DNA from: Daucus carota subsp. sativus
Taxonomy: Eukaryota; Streptophyta; Magnoliopsida; Apiales; Apiaceae
Assembly: GCF_001625215.2 (NCBI RefSeq)
Contig: NC_030386.2
Coordinates: forward strand, 39,650,796-39,714,795
Direction: 5' to 3'
DNA length: 64,000 bases
In this document: positions 6,291 to 60,469 of the stretch, one piece after another
Layout of the letters: every line of letters starts with the position of its first letter
Position numbering within the stretch: position 1 is the first letter of the stretch
Position numbers and translations under genes: made by a program
Notes under the pieces: generated by a model
Seen by the model: the letters and a program-made list of their open reading frames with translations, nothing else
What the model was told of the DNA's origin: nothing
Database searches by the model: none

Positions 6291-6539
6291 AAAACCCATT
6301 AATTTACTATTCCACTTTTAGTAATAAATACCAAAATTCATGTTTTAGAAAAACTATAAATAAGTTAATGGTAGATTCACAGCGATAAAGAATTAACAAC
6401 AGAATAAAGTAATAAATACACAAATTCATTATTTAAAAAATATATTTTTATATTATACAGAATTTTACTTATTTTAGTAAATTATATAAATGGACCATTT
6501 TCAAAAAAAGTTGCCAGTGTTTGAAATCAAAAAGTGGAG

Positions 6540-8880
6540 ATGAAGCTGAGCTTCGCTCCGTCATCATTCGCTTCCATAATCACTCCAATCTTCACCCAAT
6601 CCAAAATCCACACCCGACCCATTTCATATTCCTCCATTTCAACCCGACCCACTTCGCTTAAACCCAAAACCCCTTTGTTTTTAAGGCCCCCCACCTACTC
6701 AACTACCGTTTCTGAGCTTCAAAAATGGCACAACTGGGCTCAAACCCTAGCCTCTTCAGTGGGATCCACTTTCTTGGAATCTGACAATGGACCCACCTCA
6801 GAAAACTTGAAAAGAGAGGTTGTTTGGCTGTTAGAAGACGTTCTTGAAAACCCCAAATCGAATTTGATTGATAATTGTGGTTTTAATGATGGGGGTGATT
6901 TTGTGAAATTGAGGGTTGAATTGGGTGATTTGTATGTTTTGTGGAAGCAGAGAGTTGAGGAGAGAAGGCCATTTCAGTATGTGGTTGGGTGTGAGCATTG
7001 GAGGGACTTGGTGTTGAGTGTGGAAGAAGGGGTTTTGATTCCGAGGCCCGAGACGGAGAAGATTGTTGATTTGGTGAGTGATATCATTGAGGGGAATGAG
7101 ATGTTGAAGGAGGGATTGTGGGCTGATTTAGGGACCGGGAGTGGAGCTCTTGCTATCGGGATTGGGAGGGTTTTAGGGAGTAATGGGAGGGTTATTGCTA
7201 GTGATTTGAGTGACATTGCGGTTCGAGTTGCTTCTTTTAATGTGCAGAGGTATAATTTGCAGGTTGGTGGTATAAGTTTCAGTTTCGTGTAGGTTTTATC
7301 TCTGATTATGAATTATGAATTTGTTAATCTCTTGTCTAAAGTTTTACGAATGTTGGTCTCTATAATATCTCGAAGGTTTAAGAGAGTTGGTCACCACTCA
7401 CCATATTGCTGGTATTTATGATTAGTTAAGTAATTGTTCCTATAAATATTGGTACTTGTTCTTCATTATACATGTTTGTTTAGCTTTAGATTATGCCCCC
7501 TCAAAGTAGATTTTAGTGAAATATTTAAAAAAATTGTAGTAGATGTTTATTCACCCTTTCTTTGCTTATTGATAATTTGTTCTGCAAAAATAGATGAAAC
7601 TGTTAAGCTCAGATCATAGTTTACTCCCCAAAATGTATTAAAACAGCTAGAACCTACCTAGCAGACAATATACTATTTATAGCAGGTAAAAATTTATAAC
7701 CTCTTAGCATTTGGGGATGGAGTATACCCGTAATTATATTCCCGATTTAAAATGGTAACAAAAATTCTAAGTTTGTGAATTTCAAATCTGTTATTTATTT
7801 TATGTTCTTAAGATCAGGAAGCAGTGATGGAAAAGGGAACGTTTGTTTGTTTGTTTTTGTAGTAAACCCCATTATCAGGTGATTGAAATCAACCACAAAC
7901 TCACTTCCCATAAAAAGATAGCAACTTCAAAAAAAAATTCACCTATCATGATTGGGAAAGAGAATCAGTGACAAATTAATTATGTGGAAGAGCTTCCCAA
8001 TTCAAGCTTTAAGATCAATTGCAAAACGTAGAAACATCCTGAGTTCATACCAAACCTCATTGTTTGGTAAACAAATTTTCTTCTCTCCAGACAATCTTTG
8101 ATTTTTGTTACTCTCATTGTTTGGGAAACTAGTTCCTTTTATTTTGTTCATTCTAGTAAAAAAGCAATTTGACTTGTATCAAAGCTCTGTAGGGAATTGT
8201 TTACTGGTTAGATATATTGATTTACTCTAGTTACCTGCCCCTTTTTATTTTAGGCATTCCAAATTTATTCGGAAATATCCTATTGTTCCAATTTGTGTTA
8301 AAATGTGAATCAGGATAAAATTGTAATAAGGCAAGGTTCATGGTTCGAGCCTCTCAAGGAGGCTGAAGGGGAACTTGCCGGCCTTGTAAGTAATCCACCA
8401 TACATCCCGAGCGGGCACATCAGTGGGCTACAAGCTGAGGTTGCAAAATATGAACCAAGACTTGCGCTTGATGGCGGTGAGGATGGGATGGGTGACCTGC
8501 TCCAGCTTTGCACTGGAGCTGCTTCCATGTTAAGACCTGGTGGATATTTTGCATTTGAGGTACCATTTTGCCTTAGTTCAAGCTAAAAGTTTTTCCTCTT
8601 AACTGTATTTTCATTATTTAGAAATTACTATGTTCACAAGATAATGTCCATTATGTATGTATTATTGTCATAAAACAGTATTTTGTAATTTGTTTTTACT
8701 TTTTGCTGCTTGTATCTATCTTAGTTCATAAATCTTGCTCTGCAGACAAACGGAGAAGATCAGTGCAAATTTCTTTTGAATCACATGGAAACCAAAACTA
8801 AAGGTGTATTCTATGACCTAAAGATTGTTTCTGATTTTGCGGGTATACAACGATTTGTTACTGGATTTAAAGTGAAGTAG
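6540..8880 (+). CDS. PRMC: PrmC/HemK-type protein-(glutamine-N5) methyltransferase, organellar
   Basis: Three exons join in phase: 6540-7262, 8314-8559 and 8746-8880, giving 367 aa. Residues 1 to about 60 are Ser/Thr/Pro-rich with few acids, as in a plastid or mitochondrial transit peptide. The Rossmann SAM-binding motif DLGTGSG lies at 196-202 and the family signature NPPY at 268-271, the Asn-Pro-Pro-Tyr loop that holds the substrate glutamine. Members use S-adenosylmethionine to methylate the Gln of the GGQ motif in peptide-chain release factors; an organelle-targeted copy would act on plastid or mitochondrial RFs. The ATG at 6540 is chosen because the frame upstream offers only GTG at 6534. 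Length fits the plant orthologue I recall (At5g64150, about 370 aa). Intron 1 is about 1.05 kb. The gene is convergent with the J-protein gene. Confidence 0.93.
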
Positions 8881-17685: not shown

Positions 17686-20600
17686 TCTATGTATATTATA
17701 AATCCTGAACAGTGCCACGTCATCAATGCCACATATTTCAAAAAAAAGTCCACCTCAATGCCACATATTTTAGATTTTGCCATGTCATTATAATTTCCCT
17801 TATTTATTTAAGCATATCAGAATAATCAATCACATATCTTTGAATTCCTAAAATTGAGTGTAATCAATGACTGACAATTATATTAAATTTTGAATGGTAA
17901 TGCAATAACTACATTCCATAATCATAGCATTTTTTGAATGTTAAATTTGTACGGAACTAATTAAAACTAAAAAAAATAATTATATTGAATATACTGCCAC
18001 AATTGTTAAGCTTATCATGTATCATATAACTACGCTTTAATTATATTAACTTATATATAAATAAATGAAGTGCTTAAAAATTAAAATTGAAATTTATAAT
18101 TATATTTTTATTTAATATTTAATATCCGAAAATCGTCTAAAATTTAGCTATGTTACAAATATGTTGCTTTTTAATTTTCGGAATAATATATATATTACAT
18201 TTTCTAACATAGTGATATAAGTATTATAAAAAGTACCTCTAAAAAAAAGTATTATAAAAAGTATTTTTATAAAAATATTACGTCATTAATTAGTATGTAT
18301 TAAGCATTTTATGTGGGTCAACTTAATCATAGTAGATATGTACTATTACTTAGAGACAGCAATCGGGTCGATCGAAACGGGTTTCGCAAATTCCAAAATT
18401 GAATCCAAACTATATTATAAATCCTGAACAATGCCAAATCATCAATGTCACATATTTCAAAAAAAAGTCCAAGTCAATGGCATATATTTTAAATTTTGCC
18501 ATGTCATATAATATTCCATATTTATTTTAGACCAATCAGATGTCCTAAGATTCCTAAAATTGTGCGTAATCAATGGGTCGGTCGAAACGGGTTTCACAAA
18601 TACCAAAATCGAACCCAAATCTATTTATTTAAGCGTATCAGAATAATCAATAACATATCTTTGAATTCCTAAAATTGAGTGTAATCAATGACTGACAATT
18701 ATATTAAATTTTGAATGGTAATGCAATAACTACATTCCATAATCATATCATTTTTTGAATGTTAAATTTGTACAGAACTAATTAAAATTGAAAAAGATAA
18801 TTATATTGAATATACTGCCACAATTGTTAAGCTTATCATGTACTCCCTCCGTCCCCCTGAGTAGTATACATTGGGGACGGGGACGCGGCACGGACTTTAA
18901 TGCTCCTGCAAAATGTAGTTGTGCAATCTATTTTTAAAATTTTTCTTTTCTGAATTAAAGTTTGGATGTTATATTTTTATACAAAAAAGGAAAATCTCAA
19001 AAAAAAAAGTTACGGAACTATATTTTATAAGAGCATTGAAATGCGTGTCGAGTAGTTAAAAAGAAACGTATAGAATTAAATGGGACAGAGGGAGTATCAT
19101 ATAACTACGCTTTAATTATATTAACTTATATATAAATAAATGAAGTGCTTAAAAATTAAAATTGAAATTTATAATTATATTTTTATTTAATATTTAATAT
19201 CCGAAAGTCGTCTAAAATTTAGCTATGTTACAAATATGTTGCTTTTTAATTTTCGGAATAATATATATTACATTTTCTAACATAGTGATATAAGTATTAT
19301 AAAAAGTATTTTTATAAAAATATTACGTCATTAATTAGTATGTATTAAGCATTTTATGTGGGTCAACTTAATCATAGTAGATATGTACTATTACTTAGAG
19401 ACAGCAATCGGGTTGATCGAAACGGGTTTCGCAAATTCCAAAATTGAATCCAAACTATATTATAAATCCTGAACAATGCCAAATCATCAATGTCACATAT
19501 TTCAAAAAAAAGTCCAAGTCAATGGCATATATTTTAAATTTTGCCATGTCATATAATATTCCATATTTATTTTAGACCAATCAGATGTCCTAAGATTCCT
19601 AAAATTGTGCGTAATCAATGGGTCGGTCGAAACGGGTTTCACAAATACCAAAATCGAACCCAAATTATATTATAAATCCTGAACAGTGCCAAATCATCAA
19701 TGCCACATATTTCAAAAAAAAAAGTCCACGACAAAAACACCTATTTTAAATTTTGACGTGTCATATCATATTCCATATTTATTTTAGACCAATCACATGT
19801 CCTAAAAATCCTAAAATTGGGCGTAATCAATGACTGACAATTATATTAAATTTTGAATGGTAATGCAATAACTACATTCCATGTATCATAGCATTTTTTG
19901 AATTTTGAATTTGTACACAACTAAAGAAAATAATTATATTGAATATACTGTCATAATTTTTAAGCTTATCATGTATCATATAACTAAGCATTAATTATAT
20001 TAATTTATATATAAATAAAGTGTTTAAAAATTAAAATTAAAATTTATAATTATATTTTTATTTAATATTTAATATTCGGGAGTCGTCTAATATTTAGCTA
20101 TGTCACAAATATATCAATTTTTAATTTTGGGAATAATATATATTAAAGTTTCTAACATAGTGATACAGATATTATAAAAAGTATTTTTATAAATTTTAAT
20201 ATTACGTCATTAATAGTACGTATTAAACATTTTATGTAGGTCACCTTGATCATAGTAGATATGTATCACTGTTACAGATAGCAATCGGGTCAGTCGAAAT
20301 TGGTTTCGCAAATACCAAAATTGAACCCAAACTTGAAAATTTTAGGAATCTTAAACCTGAACTTGAAGGATATTACACGAGTAATTATTAAATATATATA
20401 AAATATTAAATATAAATATCTTAATTTTGTTTTAATTTTATTATATATTAAATAATAAATATATTATAAAAGATATTATTTATATATGTATGTATGTATG
20501 TATATTCGGGTTCGGGTTCGGAATGAGTTCTAGGTTTTCAGGTCGGGTTCGAATCAAACCTGATCCTGGCCCGAAAATTATTCGGGTTTAAAAACAAATT

Positions 20601-39380: not shown

Positions 39381-42300
39381 ATGGAAGAATTTCAGGGCGG
39401 AGATTCAACTCCGCAGCCAATCGATTCGAATTCATGTACATATAAATCTCTACGTACAATTTATGTGTTTTTCTGATTTAATTTGATTTAAATGAACTGT
39501 TTGTCACTAATAATTGTGATTCTGATTGAATTAATTTTGTTTGGTATGAATTGATCTTATTTTGGATATGTTAGGAGCTAAATTATCGTGTTTTCTGGTG
39601 TCCTGATGATTTGTTTGCTAGTGTTTGATTGCATCGAGAAGCTGGAGTTGAGTTGTCTGTGAATTGGCCTTGTTTTGTTTGATTGATGATTTGATGTTGT
39701 GTTTGGCTCGGGTTATTTGTGTGCAGTGTTTGATGCATCTCGGTATGCGTTTTTTAAATGAGCTGAAAAGTAGTTTGTTACTAAAAATTGTGTTTATGAT
39801 TGAATTGAATTGGTTTGTTATGATTCGATTTTAGTTTGGTTTTATTAGCAGCTGAATTATCATATTTTTCGGTATTGTGATGATTTGTTTGCTAGTATTT
39901 GATTATATCGAGAAGCTCGAGGATGAGTTGTGTGAATTGGCTTTGTGTTGTCTGCTCTATGTTGAATTTGCTAGATTATCTGTGTGCAGTGTCTGATGCA
40001 TCTCGGTATGCATTTTTAAAATGAAGTGAAAAATAGTTTGGTACTTAAAATTGTGATTGAATTGGTTTTTTATGATTTAATCTTATCTCAGAATAATTAG
40101 GAGCTGAATTTCATATTTTGTGATTTGTTGTGTAGTGTCTGGATATAGGTTACTGTTTGATTATATTGAAAGTTTGAGTTGTATGTGAATTGGCTTTGTT
40201 TTGTTTGATTGATGTTGTGTTTGACTTGGCTATTGGTATGCAGTGTTTGATGCATCTCAGTATGCCTTTTTCGGAAATGATGCCGTGGAGGAAGTTGAGC
40301 TGGGAGGATTAGAAGACGAAGAGGAAGATGAAATTGAGTATGTTCCCGCGGGTGGAGTTGTTGATGATGTTGAGCAGTTGGATAGAGACGAGGTTTCTTT
40401 TTTAATCCTTTGTTGAATTATTGAGTTGAGGTTTATGCTTTGCTGTTTTATATAGCTATAATAGTTGTTATATATGGATGCAATTTCAATTACATATTTT
40501 CCCTTTTATGTAGCATTGACTTTGAAGTATCTGTGATCCGTTATTATTGTGTACAGTATTTGTAATTACGCACGGATAATCTAAGTATTCTGTGCACTTT
40601 TTGCTTTTTGGAGCTCTTTAAACGTTAGGCTATCTAGTCAGATGTTACTTTCTGGAGTCCCATAAATGTAAGGCTATATATGAGATACCTAATTTTTGGA
40701 TGCTGCTTTCCTGAGTTCTCAACTTGTTAGGCTGTCTCTTTGATTTGAAATTAATGTGTTTTTGCTTTGGCACGTTATGATCAGACAGGCTTACAGTTTT
40801 TGATGGGCAACTGCTTAATTATCCAAATGAGACTATTTGGGAGCAGTATACAAGATTTTGGATACCGAATTGCTAATTAACTAGTATTACAATGTTACTT
40901 TTTAAAACTTAGGATTGATATTGATATATTTATTACTTTCTAAGACTTCGATTTGAATAAGAAAACTAGTTTAGCCTTTTGCAAATAGGTCAGCTTATAT
41001 ATTAATTAGAGTATTATCTTTGAGAAGTGAAACATTGTCGTTTTACTTTGTCTTGCAAGGGAAGTTCCCCACAAAGCCCAATTTATCTCCCCCAAATATC
41101 AGTTCCCTTCAGGGCGGCTGCTTTAGAAAGTCATACCTCATACAGATGCTAGACTTCCCATTGTTAAGGCAAGTGAGTAGAAAATGATAAGACCACTGAT
41201 GTCCATTAGTCCTTCCAATCAATTTCGTTTTCTAATTAAAAAGTATAAGGGCCATTGTTGGTTTCAGATGGATTTTTGATTTAAAATGCTGGGATCTGGG
41301 AAGGTGAGGTTAATAATGCTTAGTCTTCTGTCATTTTGGCAGCTAATGTAATATTTAGCTGAAACGAGGGAACTTAACGTATCAGTTATACATGGTTTTC
41401 TTTGTGTTTATGCTGGTGACCTCATTTATGCCAACATTAAACTTTTTATATATTTTTTACTTGAAGTTTGGTTCTGTTGTTTTTCTTTAAGCCATGTCTA
41501 TAAGCCATCAGGATGTGGTTTACCTGCATTCTGGTTTGACTGTTCTATTTAATTTATGTCCATCAGCCATCAGAACGTGGTTTGGTTTAAGAAGTGATTG
41601 TGCATTCTCATTTATCGATCATCATGTAATGTAGCATGTTATATATTATTTGCACTGCAACATATTAGGATCTTTGCCAGAAGTTGATGGTCTTGCTGTT
41701 ACGTTTAGTAAGGTTGGATTCCTGTTAATGAAAATTATTTGCATTACTTTCATCAATCAAATACAATGGTTGAGCTCTCTAGCGATACTGTGTGGGAAAA
41801 TTGCACATTATCAATATATAGTTAAAGAGTCAGTTTTCAGTTGACAGGAATGTTTTGTAATCTACTTTCATCTTTTTATCTCTTACTTCTTTTCCTATTC
41901 TAATTGCAACAATCTGCTTACTAATTCATCTATGAAAAAGCAAAAAGAATCAATACAAGAAGTAAAAGTGATATTATTGTTTTTTTAATCCTGTCGAGAA
42001 TATGCATCTAGGAGAAGATTTTTATTCAGATTTTAGATTTCCAGAGTGACTACAGAAAGATATTGTCAAGCGGTTCCCAGTTTGGGTGACAGACTGACAG
42101 TCAGTCATGAGTCATCTGACCACAGCCCTGGAGGCTTTCATTATTTTCCTTTGGCTTGCTATTATGTTGATGTTCTGTTAAACGGATGTTTGTTTTTAGT
42201 AAGTTGTGCTCACTGGATTGATTTTTTCCTAAGGGGGAGAATTTGTTGCAAAACTTCTATACTTTGTATGAATATCCTTTTGTTACAAGAAAAGCTTTAA

Positions 42301-45300
42301 TTGTCACTTTGTTGTGTACTTGTCATGCCTGTGAATTCATTTTCCTTTTCTATCTTGTTAACAGTTGAACAAGGCAGTCAGCATTTCAGGAAGTGCGGAC
42401 GGTACTAACGATTGGGGATCCAGAGGAAGTGAGTAAAGTTTTTTTTTTTTTTTTAAATTTTTTTTAACATGTGAATCATACCGAAAAGCTGTAAAATATC
42501 TTACATGTCATATTGGCTTTAATTGGTTTTTGTGAAATGTATGTGGAATTTTCTCATGAATATCCTGGTCTCAGTTTTGATTTTTAGTATATAAGCATGT
42601 GACAATAAATAATTTTATGTCATCAAGCTTAGCTTAGCTACTGGCTAGCTTAAGTTGGATTGTGCCTAGACCTCTCAATCTGACATCACCCCCTGCTGAT
42701 GAGCCGGCAAGCAATGTTTACTCTTCATGAAAATATATTGAATTATATGCAGCAGTCTCTCATGATGTACTGGCTGTTAATTGTTTCCCGATTTGGCTAT
42801 ACAAATTCAGTTTGCAAGTAATAATTCCTGAAGCAAAATTCGTTCATTCATGTTATATATAGTAAAAACCAATTTAGCGTGTACCACTCTACATAATTCG
42901 AACGAGTAATAACTAGAGTTGTACGAAGAATTAGTATCTACTGAATTGGTAACATTTTTTAATTAGCAAGGGCATTGACTTGAAAATGCAGGAACGGAAT
43001 CTTAAGGTTGATTTGATGAATAATTTCTAATATAGCAAGTTGTGAATTCTATGCGGGATGATTAAGCCTCTACCTTTTCTCAATAAGCATTACGGATTTC
43101 TTTCTTTCCTTTTTCTTTTTGGACGTAGAAGTAGCCCTTGTTTTCCTTTTGACAAAATTATGTTAGCATTCATATGGTTGAAGAAGCAGCCAACAGCTTT
43201 AATTCACCCTAGATAGTTTTGTCTGTTTAACAAATACAAGGCATGGACCCTTGTCCCGAGAAGTTCATACTAAATATTCTTGCATCAGTCTACATTCATG
43301 TAAATGCCACCAGGCTTGACATGTCAGACCTAGTTTTAAATAAAGTTGAGAATATCTGATGATGACCAACTGATATCTGTGCCCTTTTCCAAAAAATAGC
43401 TGCTTCATTAAAGCAAACATAGACGATGCGTCGATATCTGACCTAGCAATTCACTTTCCTTAAGTAATATAGAATATATTGACAAAACAAAAATTGGCTG
43501 GTGGAAGTCTAAAAGTATAGTTTACTGTCTAAAAGTATAGTTTACTCGTGACTTAAATGATTATATGATGTAATAATCTGTGTTGGTCATTTTCTGTTTT
43601 CATATGCCAGGTTCATTTGCTCAGGAGTGGTTATTACCGGAGTTGGAATCTCCTAACTTGTACAATCAGCATCCTGGGGAATCATATCTTTTGCACAGAA
43701 CATCTTCGTATCCTGAGCAGCAGCAGCAACATATTTTCCAGCACCAGCACTTCTCCAGTGAACCAAATTTTGGTCCAAAATCATCTTTTACTTCTCATCC
43801 ACCCCCTGGAGGCAGATCTTTGCAACCTTTATCCAACCAGCTACACAATTCCAACATTCATCATCTACCAGGTGGGAACCAACTGCAACTTAATGCACCC
43901 AGTCATCTTCCCTTCTCCAGTTCCCAGCTACAATTTACTGGATCTCCTCATGGTTCTCCATTCGGTGAACATCTGTCTCAGTTAGCTCTTCGTGCTCATC
44001 CCGTTGACAGTCAACTGCAAAACCAATATATCAACCGCACAGGGTCATATCCTGGAGATAATTCCCTCCTCACAAACAAAAGCTTGCATCAACAGTTACC
44101 TAATCTAAATGGTTTAATGCCTCCTCAGTTAATGCAACAACATAGAATGCACCGTCAGTTTCAGCCTTCATTTGGCCATGTATCAGGATTGCAGCGGCAG
44201 CCAAATAATCGGCATCTTCCTCCTGCTCATCATATGATGAATAATTTTGAAATGCTTGGATCTACTGATTTGAGAGATCAAAAACCCAAGTTGTTCCTAA
44301 AAGGAAGGCAAGGTATCCCTTATTCAAACCATGGTTTTGATGCAAGCAACCAATGGAATGATAGTGGATGGCCAAGGTTTAGAGCCAAATATATGAGTGC
44401 TGATGAAATCGAGAACATTCTGAGAGCGCAGCTAGCTGCTACTCATATTAACGATCCATATGTTGATGACTACTACCACCAAGCTTGCCTAGCAAAGAAA
44501 AGTACTGGTGCTAAATTGAGGCGCCATTTTTGCCCTGCCAACCTCAAGGATCATCCTTCCCGTGCTCGAGTTGATAATGAGCCTCATCCCTTTCTCAAGG
44601 TTGATGCTCTTGGGCGGGTTTGCTTCTCTTCTATTCGAAGACCTCGCCCACTTCTTGAAGTTGACCCACCAAATTCATCAGGGACCGACAGTACTGATCA
44701 AAAAGGAATGGAGAAGCTAGGGGTGTTCGCGGTGCGGGCGGTGCGGTTTTTTCCTAAAACCGCGAACCAATCCGCGCATGTGGTTTAGGAAAATTCGTAA
44801 ACCGCAACCGCATCGCGTAATATAAAAACCGCGTAAACCACACCACAAAATTGCGGTGCGGTGTGATGCGGTTCATGCGGTTTGCGTGGTTTATACATTC
44901 AAAAAATTTATACTTTTGAATGACAATATAAATATAATTTTAAATTATATGTATTTAAAAATAATTTTTATAATCTATTAATACACACACACAAATTTAG
45001 AGTTACGATACTCATCAAAAGAAATATGAACTAAAATATGAGTATGATAATGATGAAGATGAAAATATTTCAACACTAACAAGTTATTTAATAGAAAATA
45101 AATATAATTATAATATTTAATTTGTCGTCTTAAAACTAACTTTAATTTTTATTGTAAAATTATTAAAATTAAGTTAAGTAACTTGAACATATATATAATA
45201 TATACACAAATAGGAGTTAACATATATATACACACATAAAAGATAACATCATAATAAATTTTAAATCTATATAATATAAATATTTGTAATTATATGAGAT

Positions 45301-46397
45301 ATATTTTTATATATTAGAAAGTAGCGGTGCGGTGCGGTTTGAACCGCGGTTGTATAATGTTAAACCGCAACCCGCACCGCACCGCGCGGTTTGTTAAAAT
45401 TTCAACCCGCAACCGCACCACGAAAAAGAAAAACCGCATTTTGCGGTGTGGTGCGGAGCGGTGCGGGCGGTTTATGCGGTGTGGGCGGTTTGATGAACAC
45501 CCCTAGGAGAAGCCCTTGGAACAGGAGCCAATGCTTGCAGCCAGAGTAACAATTGAAGATGGCCTTTCTCTTCTCCTTGATGTTGATGATATTGACAGGT
45601 ACCTACAGTTCAATCATCTCCCAGATGTTGTGGTGCAGCTAAGGGGACGTCGGCAGGTCTTGCTTGAGGATCTTCAATCATCACTTCAACTTGTTGACCC
45701 GCTTGGTGAAAATGGGAACACTGTAAATTTGTCTCCCGAAGATGACCTTGTTTTCCTTCGATTAGTCTCTCTTCCGAAGGGCCGAAAGCTCCTATGCAGG
45801 TACCTTCAGCTCCTCTTTTCTAGCGCTGAACTCATTCGGGTAGTATGTATGGCCATATTTCGTCATTTGAGATTTTTGTTTGGGACCCCGTCCGCTGACC
45901 CCAAGACTGCTGAAACAACTACCAATCTTGTGAAAATTGTTTCATCCTGTGTTCGTGGAATGGACCTTCGAGCACTCGGGGCTTGTCTTGCTTCAGTTGT
46001 TTGTTCTGCCGAGCATCCACCTCTCAGACCCCTTGGGAGCTCTGCAGGAGAAGGTGCTTCTGTTATTCTGATATCTGCACTTGAAAGGGCTACTGAACTC
46101 CTAAGAGATCCTCATACTTCTGCGAACTGCAGTATCCCGAATAGAAAATTTTGGCAGGCTTCTTTTGATGTATTTTTCAACCTTCTTACAAAGTACTGCA
46201 TCAGCAAGTATGACACTACCGTGCAATCTCTTCTTGCACAGGGTCTTGCAGATACGTCTACTATAGGTTCAGAGACAACAAAAGCTATGAGCAGAGAAAT
46301 GCCGGTAGAACTTTTACGTGCAAGTCTACCTCATACGAATGAACAACAGAGGAAGGTTTTGTTGGACTTTGCACAGCGATCGATGCCTATGCTTTGA
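39381..46397 (+). CDS. PAT1: PAT1 mRNA-decay factor (topoisomerase II-associated PAT1 family), coding exon interrupted by a hAT MITE
   Basis: The exons are 39381-39435, 40244-40392, 42365-42428 and the large exon 43611-46397, which contains a 788-bp transposon (44718-45505). Without the insertion and one 8-bp target copy the product is 752 aa. The N-terminus has the conserved FDASQYAFFG motif and an acidic patch; a Gln/His/Pro/Ser-rich middle follows. The C-terminal region (MSADEIENILR, then NDPYVDDYYHQACLAKK, then the helical PatC part with LPKGRKLLCRYLQLL) is typical. Pat1 proteins bridge the decapping enzyme, LSM1-7 and DDX6 helicases in P-bodies. Translated without splicing, the insertion stops the frame at 44788, giving about 481 aa and losing the PatC domain. 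Removal of 44723-45506 would give 756 aa. Best match by memory is At1g79090. Confidence 0.93.
39480..40270 (+). repeat. Three diverged tandem copies of the intron-1/exon-2 junction of PAT1
   Basis: Units of about 263 and 254 bp (roughly 39480-39752, 39753-40014, 40015-40270) each end with GCAG followed by TGTTTGATGCATCTC (or TGTCTGATGCATCTC). The third copy supplies the real acceptor and start of exon 2 (40244). The earlier two (39727 and 39990) are decoys that would encode FDASRYAF or SDASRYAF and then meet a stop codon within a few residues. Confidence 0.85.
44718..45505. mobile_element. hAT-type MITE inserted in the PAT1 coding exon
   Basis: The 788-bp element has termini TAGGGGTGTTC and GAACACCCCTA. 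It is flanked by the perfect 8-bp direct repeat GGAGAAGC (44710-44717 and 45506-45513), diagnostic of hAT transposition. Both subterminal regions (about 150-200 bp) are dense in GCGGTGCGG/AACCGCAACCGC words, and the centre is very AT-rich. It encodes no transposase. The reading frame of the host exon resumes exactly after the right target copy. See the findings for the possible intron. Confidence 0.96.
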
Positions 46398-47741: not shown

Positions 47742-48992
47742 TCAATATACTTATATAAAGGAGAAACGGGGGGCGTGTATGTGGCGCCTCTCACATCGCT
47801 CCGTTCTATTTTTCTAATTTTCTGGAATTTTTGGATGAAAAATATTAAAAATTAGAACTACCTTTTTTAGTTTTTGGTATATTAGAAGCAAGGCAAGGTT
47901 TAGAATATGATTTTGTTTCAGATTATTTATGGAATATAGTAGCTTAAAAATTTTAATCTGATTTTGTTTCAGATTATTTAATTATGGAAAAGAGTAGCGC
48001 ACAAGTCTTTCTACACCTATAAATACCCCTGTAGATTGTACTGTTTTGGATCATCTAAACACAATCTCCTCACATCTCCTCACTCTCAATATCATAATCC
48101 TATCTCTCTCTGGTTTGCAAGCAAAGATAGTTATTGACGATCAATATACTTATATAAAGGAGAAGCAAGGACGTGTATGTGGTGTTTCTCACATTGTTCC
48201 GTTCTATTTTTCAAACTTTCAGGAATTTTTGGATGAAAATTATCAAAAAATTAGAACTACCTTTTTTAGTTTTTGGTATATTAGAAGCAAGGTTCAGAGT
48301 CTGATTTTTCTGGTAATTGTTCTCTTGCTCGATTTGCAAGGGTAGTTATAGACCACTATCTCACGGATTTAAGTCAGATGTTTTTGTATACTTATATAAA
48401 GGGGAAGCGAAGGGCGTGTATGTGGCGTCTCTCACATCGCTCCGTTTTATTTTTCTAATTTTCCGTAATTTTTGGATGAAAAATATCAAAAAATTAGAAC
48501 TACCTCTTTTAGTTTTGGGTATATTAGAAGTAAGGTTCAGAAACTGATTTTTTTTGTGATAGTTTTTTTCTTGCTCGATTTGCAAGAGTAGTTATACACC
48601 ACTATCTCACAGATTTAAGTTAGATGTTTTTGTGCACAATCAATCCAAAAAAATTGGAGAAAGGTGACAATGTAAGAACATGATTATTTAAAAAAAAAAA
48701 ACATAAATAAAATCAAGATTCGTCGTACACTTTAAATTGTTAATTACGTGTATAAATTTATTTTCATTTTTTCACCATGAATTATAGTCCAATTTTGCAA
48801 TTTTATTTATTATTGTTGGTATTACAACAAGATTTTTATAATATAAAATTAATTTTATCCTACAAATATTAATTTTGAATCATTAATATACTTTTTATAG
48901 ACAGCCACAAAATTATTTTACTCTATAAATATTAATATTAAATCATTAATATAATTTTTATAGGCCGCCGCAACGCGCGGCTTCTCAACTAG
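47742..48992 (+). mobile_element. Non-autonomous Helitron with reiterated 5' end
   Basis: It starts A|TCAATATACTTATATAAAGG and ends with the GC-rich hairpin block GCCGCCGCAACGCGCGGC followed by TTCTCAACTAG|T, matching the Helitron end rules. The 5' block (CTTATATAAAGGAGAA, GGGCGTGTATGTGGCG, CTCACATCGCTCCGTT) is present three times, at about 47750, 48148 and 48391. It is a different subfamily from copies A-D though the 5' start and hairpin are related. Small ORFs at 48046-48585 are inside it. Confidence 0.85.
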
Positions 48993-59248: not shown

Positions 59249-60469
59249 ATGGCAGTCGAAGCTAGATATTCGAATCCGTTCCATCCTTTGTTTGTTCACA
59301 ATAAAAGGTACATTTTATTTTTATTTCCGATCATCACAGACTTCGTTGCATAAATTTTTCGGGTGTTACATGTGTAAATATTTTTCGATATCGATGATGG
59401 AAATAAAATTTTCTTTTTGTAACAGACGGTTGATGAATCAAATTGATGAACAAATGAACGTGTACGGAGGATTGCTCAATCCTTTGTCCGGAACTACAAC
59501 GGAGACGTTTCTTCCGGTGTACGGAACCTCGGGGGACGACTCATTTCCGACGAAACCACCACACACCGACAGAGATCTTATGTACACTCTTCCACCGAGG
59601 AAGCGGAGCAAAGGAGATACCATCTATCAGTATCAACAAATTCAGAATCATCGGAACAATAACTTCTCGTTCCTCGGGGAAGATATCTCTTTCCTTGTCC
59701 AGTACCAGCAATTCGAGATCGACAATTTCATTTCTCAACATGTAAGTATATCAATCTACCTTCAAATCGACGATTTTTATGTATATCACACATTGTTCTA
59801 AAAGTCGATAATTAATCGCAATTATTTGTCTGTTGTTTTCATTGATTAAATCTGATTTTCGCTTTTCACAACACTGATATTAGACTCAAAAGTCTCCTCA
59901 ATATCGTAATATCATGCCAAATTATTCAATTTGTGTGAAAATTTATGTGTTTTCAGACGGAGAAGATCAGATCAGAAATCGAAGAACACCTAAACCCTAG
60001 CTCGAGAAGAATCACAGCAGCGGTGGAAGACGTGATAGTCAAGAAACTTCAAGCGAAAGAAAAGGAGCTGGAGAAAGCAGTGAAACTAAACTCAGCATTG
60101 CACGAAAAAGTGAAATCTCTATGCATGGAAAATGAGATCTGGAGAGACCTGGCTCAATCAACCGAGGCCACCGCGAATACTCTGAGAACTAATCTGCAAC
60201 AAGTACTGAGGCACTATCAGATGGCGAGGGATCAGAGCGAAGACGCGGAGTCTTGCTGTGATAGTAGTAATGAGAGAGACGGAATGGAGGAGCACGGTGG
60301 TGGGAGTAGGGTGGGAATGTGGTGTAGGAAGTGCGGGAAGGAGGAGTCGTGTGTTTTGGTGTTGCCGTGCAGGCATCTGTGTGTTTGTAGTGTGTGTGAA
60401 TCGTCTGTTAGGGTTTGTCCGGTTTGTAGATCTGCTAAGAATGCTAGTTTGGTGGTGAACATGTACTGA
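59249..60469 (+). CDS. BRG2: BOI/BRG-type RING E3 ubiquitin ligase
   Basis: Three exons join in phase: 59249-59307, 59426-59741 and 59957-60469 (295 aa). The product has an N-terminal low-complexity half with an RKRSK-like basic patch, then a conserved coiled-coil (about 126-205: EIEEHL, KKLQAKEKELEKAVKLNSAL, IWRDLAQ). A C-terminal RING follows: C248, C251, C263, H265, C269, C272, C279 and C282 (C3HC4 spacing 2-11-1-3-2-6-2), ending SLVVNMY. This is the S-ribonuclease-binding-protein/BOI family, E3 ligases that in Arabidopsis attenuate cell death and gibberellin responses through MYB and DELLA partners. Assignment to BRG2 (At1g79110) rests partly on neighbours (PAT1, RecA); BRG3 or BRG1 are alternatives. 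Length is a little short of the usual 300-350 aa. Confidence 0.92.

What the first reader, a model, noticed from the sequence alone, without database searches (positions are those of the whole stretch)
44710..45513. hAT MITE in a PAT1 coding exon that could be spliced out in frame using its own ends
A 788-bp hAT-type element with termini TAGGGGTGTTC/GAACACCCCTA and perfect 8-bp target duplication GGAGAAGC splits the main coding exon of PAT1. Read through, the frame ends 26 codons past the codon where the insertion starts to be read, losing the conserved PatC part. Yet a GT lies at 44723-44724 just inside the left terminus (codon GGG|GTGTTC), and the right terminus plus first target base form CCCCTAG at 45500-45506. 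Excising 44723-45506 joins GGG to GAG AAG CCC in the native frame, adding only Leu-Gly-Glu-Lys. The interior is AT-rich like a plant intron. Splicing of Ds and dSpm insertions from maize exons is established; whether it happens here is inference.
Basis: partly seen in the sequence, partly recalled or inferred. Interest (0 to 1): 0.88.

Follow-up and report, generated by a model that had tools for sequence, protein, structure and literature searches.

The report
Jumping-gene insert in plant PAT1 exon
A short jumping gene sits inside the main coding exon of a plant mRNA-decay gene (PAT1); its own ends could in principle let the cell splice it out in frame, but the splice signals are mixed and only RNA data can show whether this happens.

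Summary
A 788-bp nonautonomous hAT-type element (44718-45505, inverted ends 11/11) with a perfect 8-bp duplication interrupts the last exon of an otherwise open four-exon PAT1 gene. Excising 44723-45506 keeps the frame and adds Leu-Gly-Glu-Lys.

The frame match follows from the ends: TAGGG plus 7 duplicated bases is 12 nt, and 289 of 1983 insertion points in this exon (14.6%) would do the same.

Site strength is mixed. On recalled plant frequencies the donor ranks 21 of 45 element GTs and the acceptor 7 of 23 AGs, below the native sites; by predicted U1 pairing the donor ranks first of 45. Five left-end donors are in frame with the acceptor. The intron-like composition is confined to the core.

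Spliced plant transposons and algal Introners adding four residues are published; so is a Kerria insert with similar ends that broke its gene. No host genome or RNA was available. Most likely a damaged, perhaps leaky allele; in-frame rescue is possible but unshown.

The parts
39381..39435 (+). PAT1 exon 1 (start codon 39381)
   Evidence: joins in frame to exon 2, protein begins MEEFQGGDSTPQPIDSNSLFDASQYAFFG; limits set by hand from frame and GT/AG
40244..40392 (+). PAT1 exon 2
42365..42428 (+). PAT1 exon 3
43611..46397 (+). PAT1 exon 4 (last coding exon), interrupted by the element; stop codon 46395-46397
   Evidence: empty-site protein matches Pfam PF09770 PAT1, E 3.1e-5, 23 bits (cut-off 25), residues 422-559, spanning the insertion in codon 459
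44710..44717 (.). left target-site duplication GGAGAAGC
44718..45505 (.). 788-bp nonautonomous hAT-type element
44718..44728 (+). left terminal inverted repeat TAGGGGTGTTC
45495..45505 (-). right terminal inverted repeat
44718..44917 (.). left 200 bp with subterminal motifs (7 GCGGT, 4 ACCGC)
   Evidence: none in the 388-bp interior
45306..45505 (.). right 200 bp with the same motifs (10 GCGGT, 6 ACCGC)
44723..45506 (+). hypothetical intron formed by the element's ends plus the first base of the right duplication (784 nt)
   Evidence: frame kept, +LGEK; no RNA evidence
44786..44788 (+). in-frame TAG that ends read-through translation
45506..45513 (.). right target-site duplication GGAGAAGC

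Best explanation
A nonautonomous hAT-type transposon inserted, probably recently, into the last coding exon of a plant PAT1 gene. The primary transcript carries the element; read through, or with only its A/T-rich core removed, it meets TAG 44786 and yields a 481-aa protein lacking the C-terminal part. A minority of transcripts may escape, because the left end offers five GTs upstream of that stop which are in frame with the acceptors at 45506 and 45524; such transcripts would give a near-normal protein. The allele is therefore most likely a hypomorph: mostly truncated, with leaky in-frame splicing. Shown: insertion, ends, duplication, frames, stop. Inferred: recency, transcript fates, leaky splicing, loss of function.
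For: Perfect duplication and ends. The rest of the gene is open: 4 exons, 752-aa empty-site frame, no other stop; third-position G+C is 0.353 and 0.369 on the two sides. The PAT1 profile match spans the insertion codon, while the two halves of exon 4 alone gave 0 families (upstream part at E up to 0.001; downstream at E up to 10). Of 17 GTs at 44718-44900, five are in frame and open with AG 45506, and the same five with AG 45524. Four donors tested beyond the stop (44797, 44861, 44880, 44889) leave it in the transcript. Transposon-derived introns are reviewed with Zea and Oryza among the species (PMC3443670 passages); titles of Dennis 1988, Wessler 1991 and Giroux 1994 on spliced Ds were seen in a reference list. 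A plant insert with ends TAGGGGTGGGC and an 8-bp duplication in Kerria AGAMOUS caused premature termination, used its own acceptors and abolished function (PMC6052346 passages), although it lies in an intron.
Against: No RNA, no second accession and no host genome could be examined. Leaky splicing is not shown. Recency rests only on intact ends and duplication and an undecayed downstream frame. The end donor is the best of 45 by predicted U1 pairing, so splicing could be more efficient than supposed.
Confidence: 0.45

Rival explanations
1. Plain loss-of-function allele: the element is not spliced in frame at any useful level. Transcripts read through, lose only the A/T-rich core, or end at premature poly(A) sites, and another PAT1 copy or the other haplotype covers the function.
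For: End-pair sites score low on recalled frequencies (donor 3.07 against 4.26-5.38 native; acceptor 1.99 against 5.00-7.74 native). The ends are G+C-rich and pair with each other: 9-nt unpaired probability 0.014 at the donor and 0.002 at the acceptor, median 0.032. Two AATAAA hexamers lie in the core (45097, 45253). The A/T step lies near 44880 and 45320, inside the element and past the stop. The Kerria insert with TAGGGGTG ends broke its gene (PMC6052346).
Against: Exonic Ds insertions are known to be spliced (titles only; details recalled). Several in-frame donors exist, the end donor ranks first of 45 by U1 pairing, and the downstream frame shows no decay.
Confidence: 0.35
2. Efficient intronization at the ends: the spliceosome uses 44723 and 45506, the element behaves as a new 784-nt intron, and PAT1 gains four residues (LGEK).
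For: GT and AG exactly at the ends, frame kept. Donor first of 45 element GTs by U1 pairing, stronger than 92% of the window's GTs. A branch-point-like TTTAT starts at 45471, its A 32 nt before the intron's last base. Overall A+T equals that of the native introns. Aureococcus Introners add 12 bp and four residues in a similar way (PMC9860276).
Against: Rank 37 of 90 open pairs and 433 of 1299 pairs on recalled frequencies. Only CCCC precedes the acceptor TAG as a pyrimidine tract; 45440-45490 is G-rich. Only three Watson-Crick pairs with U1 in register. Chance of the frame match 14.6%.
Confidence: 0.15
3. Splicing rescues the gene, but through exonic cryptic sites activated by the insertion (for example donor 44600 or 44618 with acceptor 45524), deleting some PAT1 residues.
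For: Such pairs outscore the end pair and keep the frame: 44618-45524 scores 11.11 and 44600-45524 scores 10.67, against 5.06.
Against: Scores use recalled frequencies. Those exon sites existed before the insertion and were presumably unused. They delete residues up to and including part of the KPLEQEP segment, which I recall as conserved.
Confidence: 0.05

Closest known systems
Maize Ds/Ds1 insertions spliced from exons (Dennis 1988; Wessler 1991; Giroux 1994)
   Same: Nonautonomous hAT element with 8-bp duplication and 11-bp ends in a plant coding exon; splicing is the escape.
   Different: Ac/Ds ends are C/TAGGGATGAAA (PMC3260210 passage), without the GT of TAGGGGTG. Splicing is shown there (titles seen, content recalled), not here.
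Introners of Aureococcus (PMC9860276, Fig. 2F-G legend)
   Same: Insert carries splice sites near its ends and adds 12 bp, four amino acids, to the transcript (there 4 bp element + 8 bp duplication; here 5 + 7).
   Different: Introners are many-copy families found among annotated introns; here one copy, unconfirmed. Among animals and land plants the paper found them in two groups, both animals.
Transposon-insertion model of intron gain (review PMC3443670, passages)
   Same: Transposon harbouring splice sites near its boundaries, nearly precise excision.
   Different: The review's table counts 35 events in Oryza, Drosophila, Oikopleura and Zea, with indirect evidence and no in vivo demonstration; this locus has no transcript support.
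Insert in Kerria japonica AGAMOUS (PMC6052346, passages)
   Same: Plant insert without transposase, ends TAGGGGTGGGC (first 8 bases as here), 8-bp duplication, alters splicing.
   Different: 2411 bp, in intron 1, supplies new acceptors and exons and abolishes function; the authors did not call it hAT in the passages seen.

Membership tests
hAT superfamily DNA transposon (nonautonomous) | 8-bp target-site duplication | tested here: met
   GGAGAAGC 8/8
hAT superfamily DNA transposon (nonautonomous) | short terminal inverted repeats of hAT type (T/CAGGG...) | tested here: met
   TAGGGGTGTTC 11/11; similar to C/TAGGGATGAAA of Ac/Ds (PMC3260210)
hAT superfamily DNA transposon (nonautonomous) | subterminal repeated motifs within about 200 bp of the ends | tested here: met
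   GCGGT/ACCGC 27 in the two 200-bp ends, 0 in the 388-bp interior, 20 in the rest of the window; binding by a transposase untested
hAT superfamily DNA transposon (nonautonomous) | mobilised by a hAT transposase; further copies in the genome | not testable with these tools
   no host genome held; no second end-to-end copy in the window
Introner / transposon-derived intron | spliced from the transcript | not testable with these tools
   no RNA data
Introner / transposon-derived intron | multiple similar copies acting as introns in different genes | tested here: inconclusive
   one copy in 64 kb; genome not available
PAT1 (Pfam PF09770) | profile match | tested here: inconclusive
   E 3.1e-5, 23 bits, just under the curated cut-off of 25; other support is recalled similarity to plant PAT1; structure model of the C-terminal part poor, all-helical, mean pLDDT 44

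The most novel reading that the evidence does not exclude
hAT elements ending in TAGGGGTG are preformed introns. Both ends are the same sequence inverted, so any insertion in either orientation whose 8-bp duplication starts with G carries GT inside the left end and CCCCTA+G at the right, and splicing always adds exactly 12 nt (5 from the element, 7 from the duplication). The frame is kept whatever the element's length, in two of three codon phases (the third reads TAG). Such a family would be a land-plant counterpart of Introners, and PAT1 here one instance.
Probability: 0.12. Interest if true: 0.75.

Novelty: new member of a known kind. Interest (0 to 1): 0.42.

Why it matters
The review PMC3443670 names as not understood why inserted transposons are spliced, and whether some do so preferentially because of their own sequence. 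The ends of this element give a concrete rule, independent of length and orientation, that can be tested on every exonic copy of this class in any plant genome with RNA-seq. For the locus itself, the question is whether an mRNA-decay gene survives an exonic insertion.

Tried and rejected
Assembly artefact: rejected as the main reading, since a perfect 8-bp duplication and matched ends are what transposition leaves; a haplotype-specific insertion remains possible. Insertion into a native intron: rejected, as both flanks are one open frame.

A copy elsewhere in the window: BLAST without low-complexity filter gave, besides the element itself, only matches of at most 90 nt (best outside it 74% over 90 nt at 19991-20074, from the A/T-rich core). 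TAGGGGTGTTC with up to 2 mismatches gave 4 matches, fewer than the chance mean of 7.8; two of the four are this element's ends.

Relatives: one viral contigs protein scan gave 2 pattern matches, neither a relative by tblastn; one end-pattern scan gave 0. PDB sequence searches gave none for the C-terminal part and nothing convincing for the N-terminal part of exon 4 (best E 0.68). The AlphaFold model of the C-terminal part was too poor for a fold search, so none was run.

Listings for the end sequence showed no transposon paper by title; one search listed the Kerria paper, whose relevance I saw only when rechecking. From the others I saw passages of PMC9860276 (and its section 7), PMC3260210 and PMC3443670. 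The paper listed was not opened. Giroux 1994, Wessler 1991 and the Huff 2016 Nature paper are not held.

Splice scores use approximate plant frequencies written from memory, with three native introns as the only control; treat ranks as rough. I left the odds as they were, because the Kerria case pulls the other way.

Full report
What is there. The window holds a four-exon gene on the + strand (39381-39435, 40244-40392, 42365-42428, 43611-46397) whose last exon is interrupted by a 788-bp element (44718-45505). The element has perfect 11-bp inverted ends (TAGGGGTGTTC/GAACACCCCTA) and is flanked by a perfect 8-bp duplication, GGAGAAGC. With the element left out the gene encodes 752 aa without a stop. 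That protein matches Pfam PAT1 (PF09770) at E 3.1e-5 and 23 bits, slightly under the curated cut-off of 25. The match covers residues 422-559 and so spans the insertion in codon 459. The two halves of exon 4 on their own match nothing (upstream at E up to 0.001; downstream at E up to 10). Identification as PAT1 rests on this and on recalled similarity to plant PAT1 proteins. Exon limits were set by hand from frame and GT/AG.

The element. The two 200-bp ends hold 27 GCGGT/ACCGC motifs, against 0 in the 388-bp interior. The core (44880-45299) is 73-88% A+T in seven 60-nt windows; the ends are 51 and 56% G+C. No second end-to-end copy lies in the window, and no host genome is held, so copy number, family and autonomous partner are untested. 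On duplication length and ends it is a nonautonomous hAT-type element; 'MITE' is a size label only. RNA of the element folds far more stably than 30 shuffles (-242.7 against -169.0, sd 5.6), as inverted ends predict.

Effect on the frame. Reading on into the element, translation stops at TAG 44786-44788 after 23 sense codons from the insertion codon, giving 481 aa (90 codons before position 43613 plus the 391). Removal of 44723-45506 gives GMEK-LGEK-PLEQEPM in frame, 756 aa.

How special is that? What remains after such splicing is TAGGG (5 nt) plus duplication bases 2-8 (7 nt), 12 nt whatever the element's length or orientation. The requirements are that the duplication starts with G and that TAG does not fall in frame. 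Placing the end at every position of exon 4, 289 of 1983 positions (14.6%) satisfy this, the same number in either orientation; over the whole coding sequence it is 360 of 2251. So the frame match is not a rare coincidence, but it is a built-in property of this type of end.

Are the sites good? The answer depends on the measure. On recalled plant splice frequencies the donor GGG|GTGTTC scores 3.07 (native 4.26, 5.14, 5.38) and the acceptor GATGAACACCCCTAG|GA scores 1.99 (native 6.87, 5.00, 7.74). Among the 3034 GTs and 3390 AGs of the window scored they lie at the 77th and 58th percentile, against 87-93 and 89-98 for the native sites. Within the element the donor is 21st of 45 GTs and the acceptor 7th of 23 AGs. 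The pair is 37th of 90 pairs that keep the frame open and 433rd of the 1299 pairs examined. By predicted U1 pairing energy, however, the donor is first of 45 (-4.9) and beats 92% of the window's GTs; the native donors have -0.5, -4.2 and -5.2. In register it makes three Watson-Crick and two wobble pairs. The acceptor has only CCCC as a pyrimidine tract; a branch-like TTTAT starts at 45471. Donor and acceptor pair with each other in the fold, which could hide both or bring them together.

What helps the rescue reading. Of 17 GTs at 44718-44900, five (44723, 44732, 44741, 44780, 44783) are in frame and open with AG 45506, and the same five with AG 45524. In-frame rescue therefore does not depend on one exact junction. 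What hurts it: the base-composition step that plant splicing favours (recalled) lies near 44880 and 45320, and the four donors tested beyond the stop (44797, 44861, 44880, 44889) leave the stop in the message. Two AATAAA hexamers lie in the core. Exonic cryptic sites outscore the end pair (44618-45524, 11.11 against 5.06).

Literature. A review lists transposon insertion as a route of intron gain with 35 events, by indirect evidence and without in vivo demonstration, in Oryza, Drosophila, Oikopleura and Zea, and says it is not understood why such elements are spliced or whether some do so preferentially (PMC3443670, passages). A 2022 survey shows Aureococcus Introners that carry both splice sites and add 12 bp, four amino acids, and reports Introners in only two groups among animals and land plants, both animals (PMC9860276, section 7 and passages). 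Maize Ac/Ds ends are C/TAGGGATGAAA with 8-bp duplications (PMC3260210, passages). The classic Ds splicing papers were seen as titles only; two were looked up and are not held. A 2411-bp insert in intron 1 of Kerria AGAMOUS has ends TAGGGGTGGGC and an 8-bp repeat, causes premature termination, supplies new acceptors and abolishes function; the same paper cites an exon 4 insertion in Thalictrum ThtAG1 with new acceptors (PMC6052346, passages). The Kerria case shows that inserts with this type of end can act on splicing in plants, and that the result can be harmful.

Verdict. I judge the likeliest state to be a damaged allele with some leaky in-frame splicing (0.45), then plain loss of function (0.35), efficient splicing at the exact ends (0.15) and rescue through exonic cryptic sites (0.05). 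The idea worth carrying forward is the general 12-nt rule for this class of ends.

Noticed in passing
39499-40271 (PAT1 intron 1 and start of exon 2): Intron 1 is built of about 260-bp tandem repeats; three copies of an acceptor plus exon 2 start lie at 39711-39754, 39974-40017 and 40228-40271 (the later two 91 and 89% identical to the first). The first two copies run into TGA soon after (read from the sequence), so they look like decoy acceptors or exons.
   Followed up: partly
47769-48569: Three copies of a 160-nt direct repeat (60 and 86% to the reference copy, spacing 398 and 243) about 1.4 kb downstream of the PAT1 stop, each preceded by TATACTTATATAAAGG.
   Followed up: no
48846-48971: A 63-nt unit in two tandem copies, 83% alike.
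   Followed up: no
59945-60469: ORF with a C-terminal RING finger (Pfam zf-C3HC4_3, E 3.4e-9).
   Followed up: no
6534-7292: ORF with a PrmA-type methyltransferase match (Pfam PF06325, E 3.5e-5, 23.9 bits, cut-off 22); looks like a HemK/PrmC-type gene (recalled).
   Followed up: no
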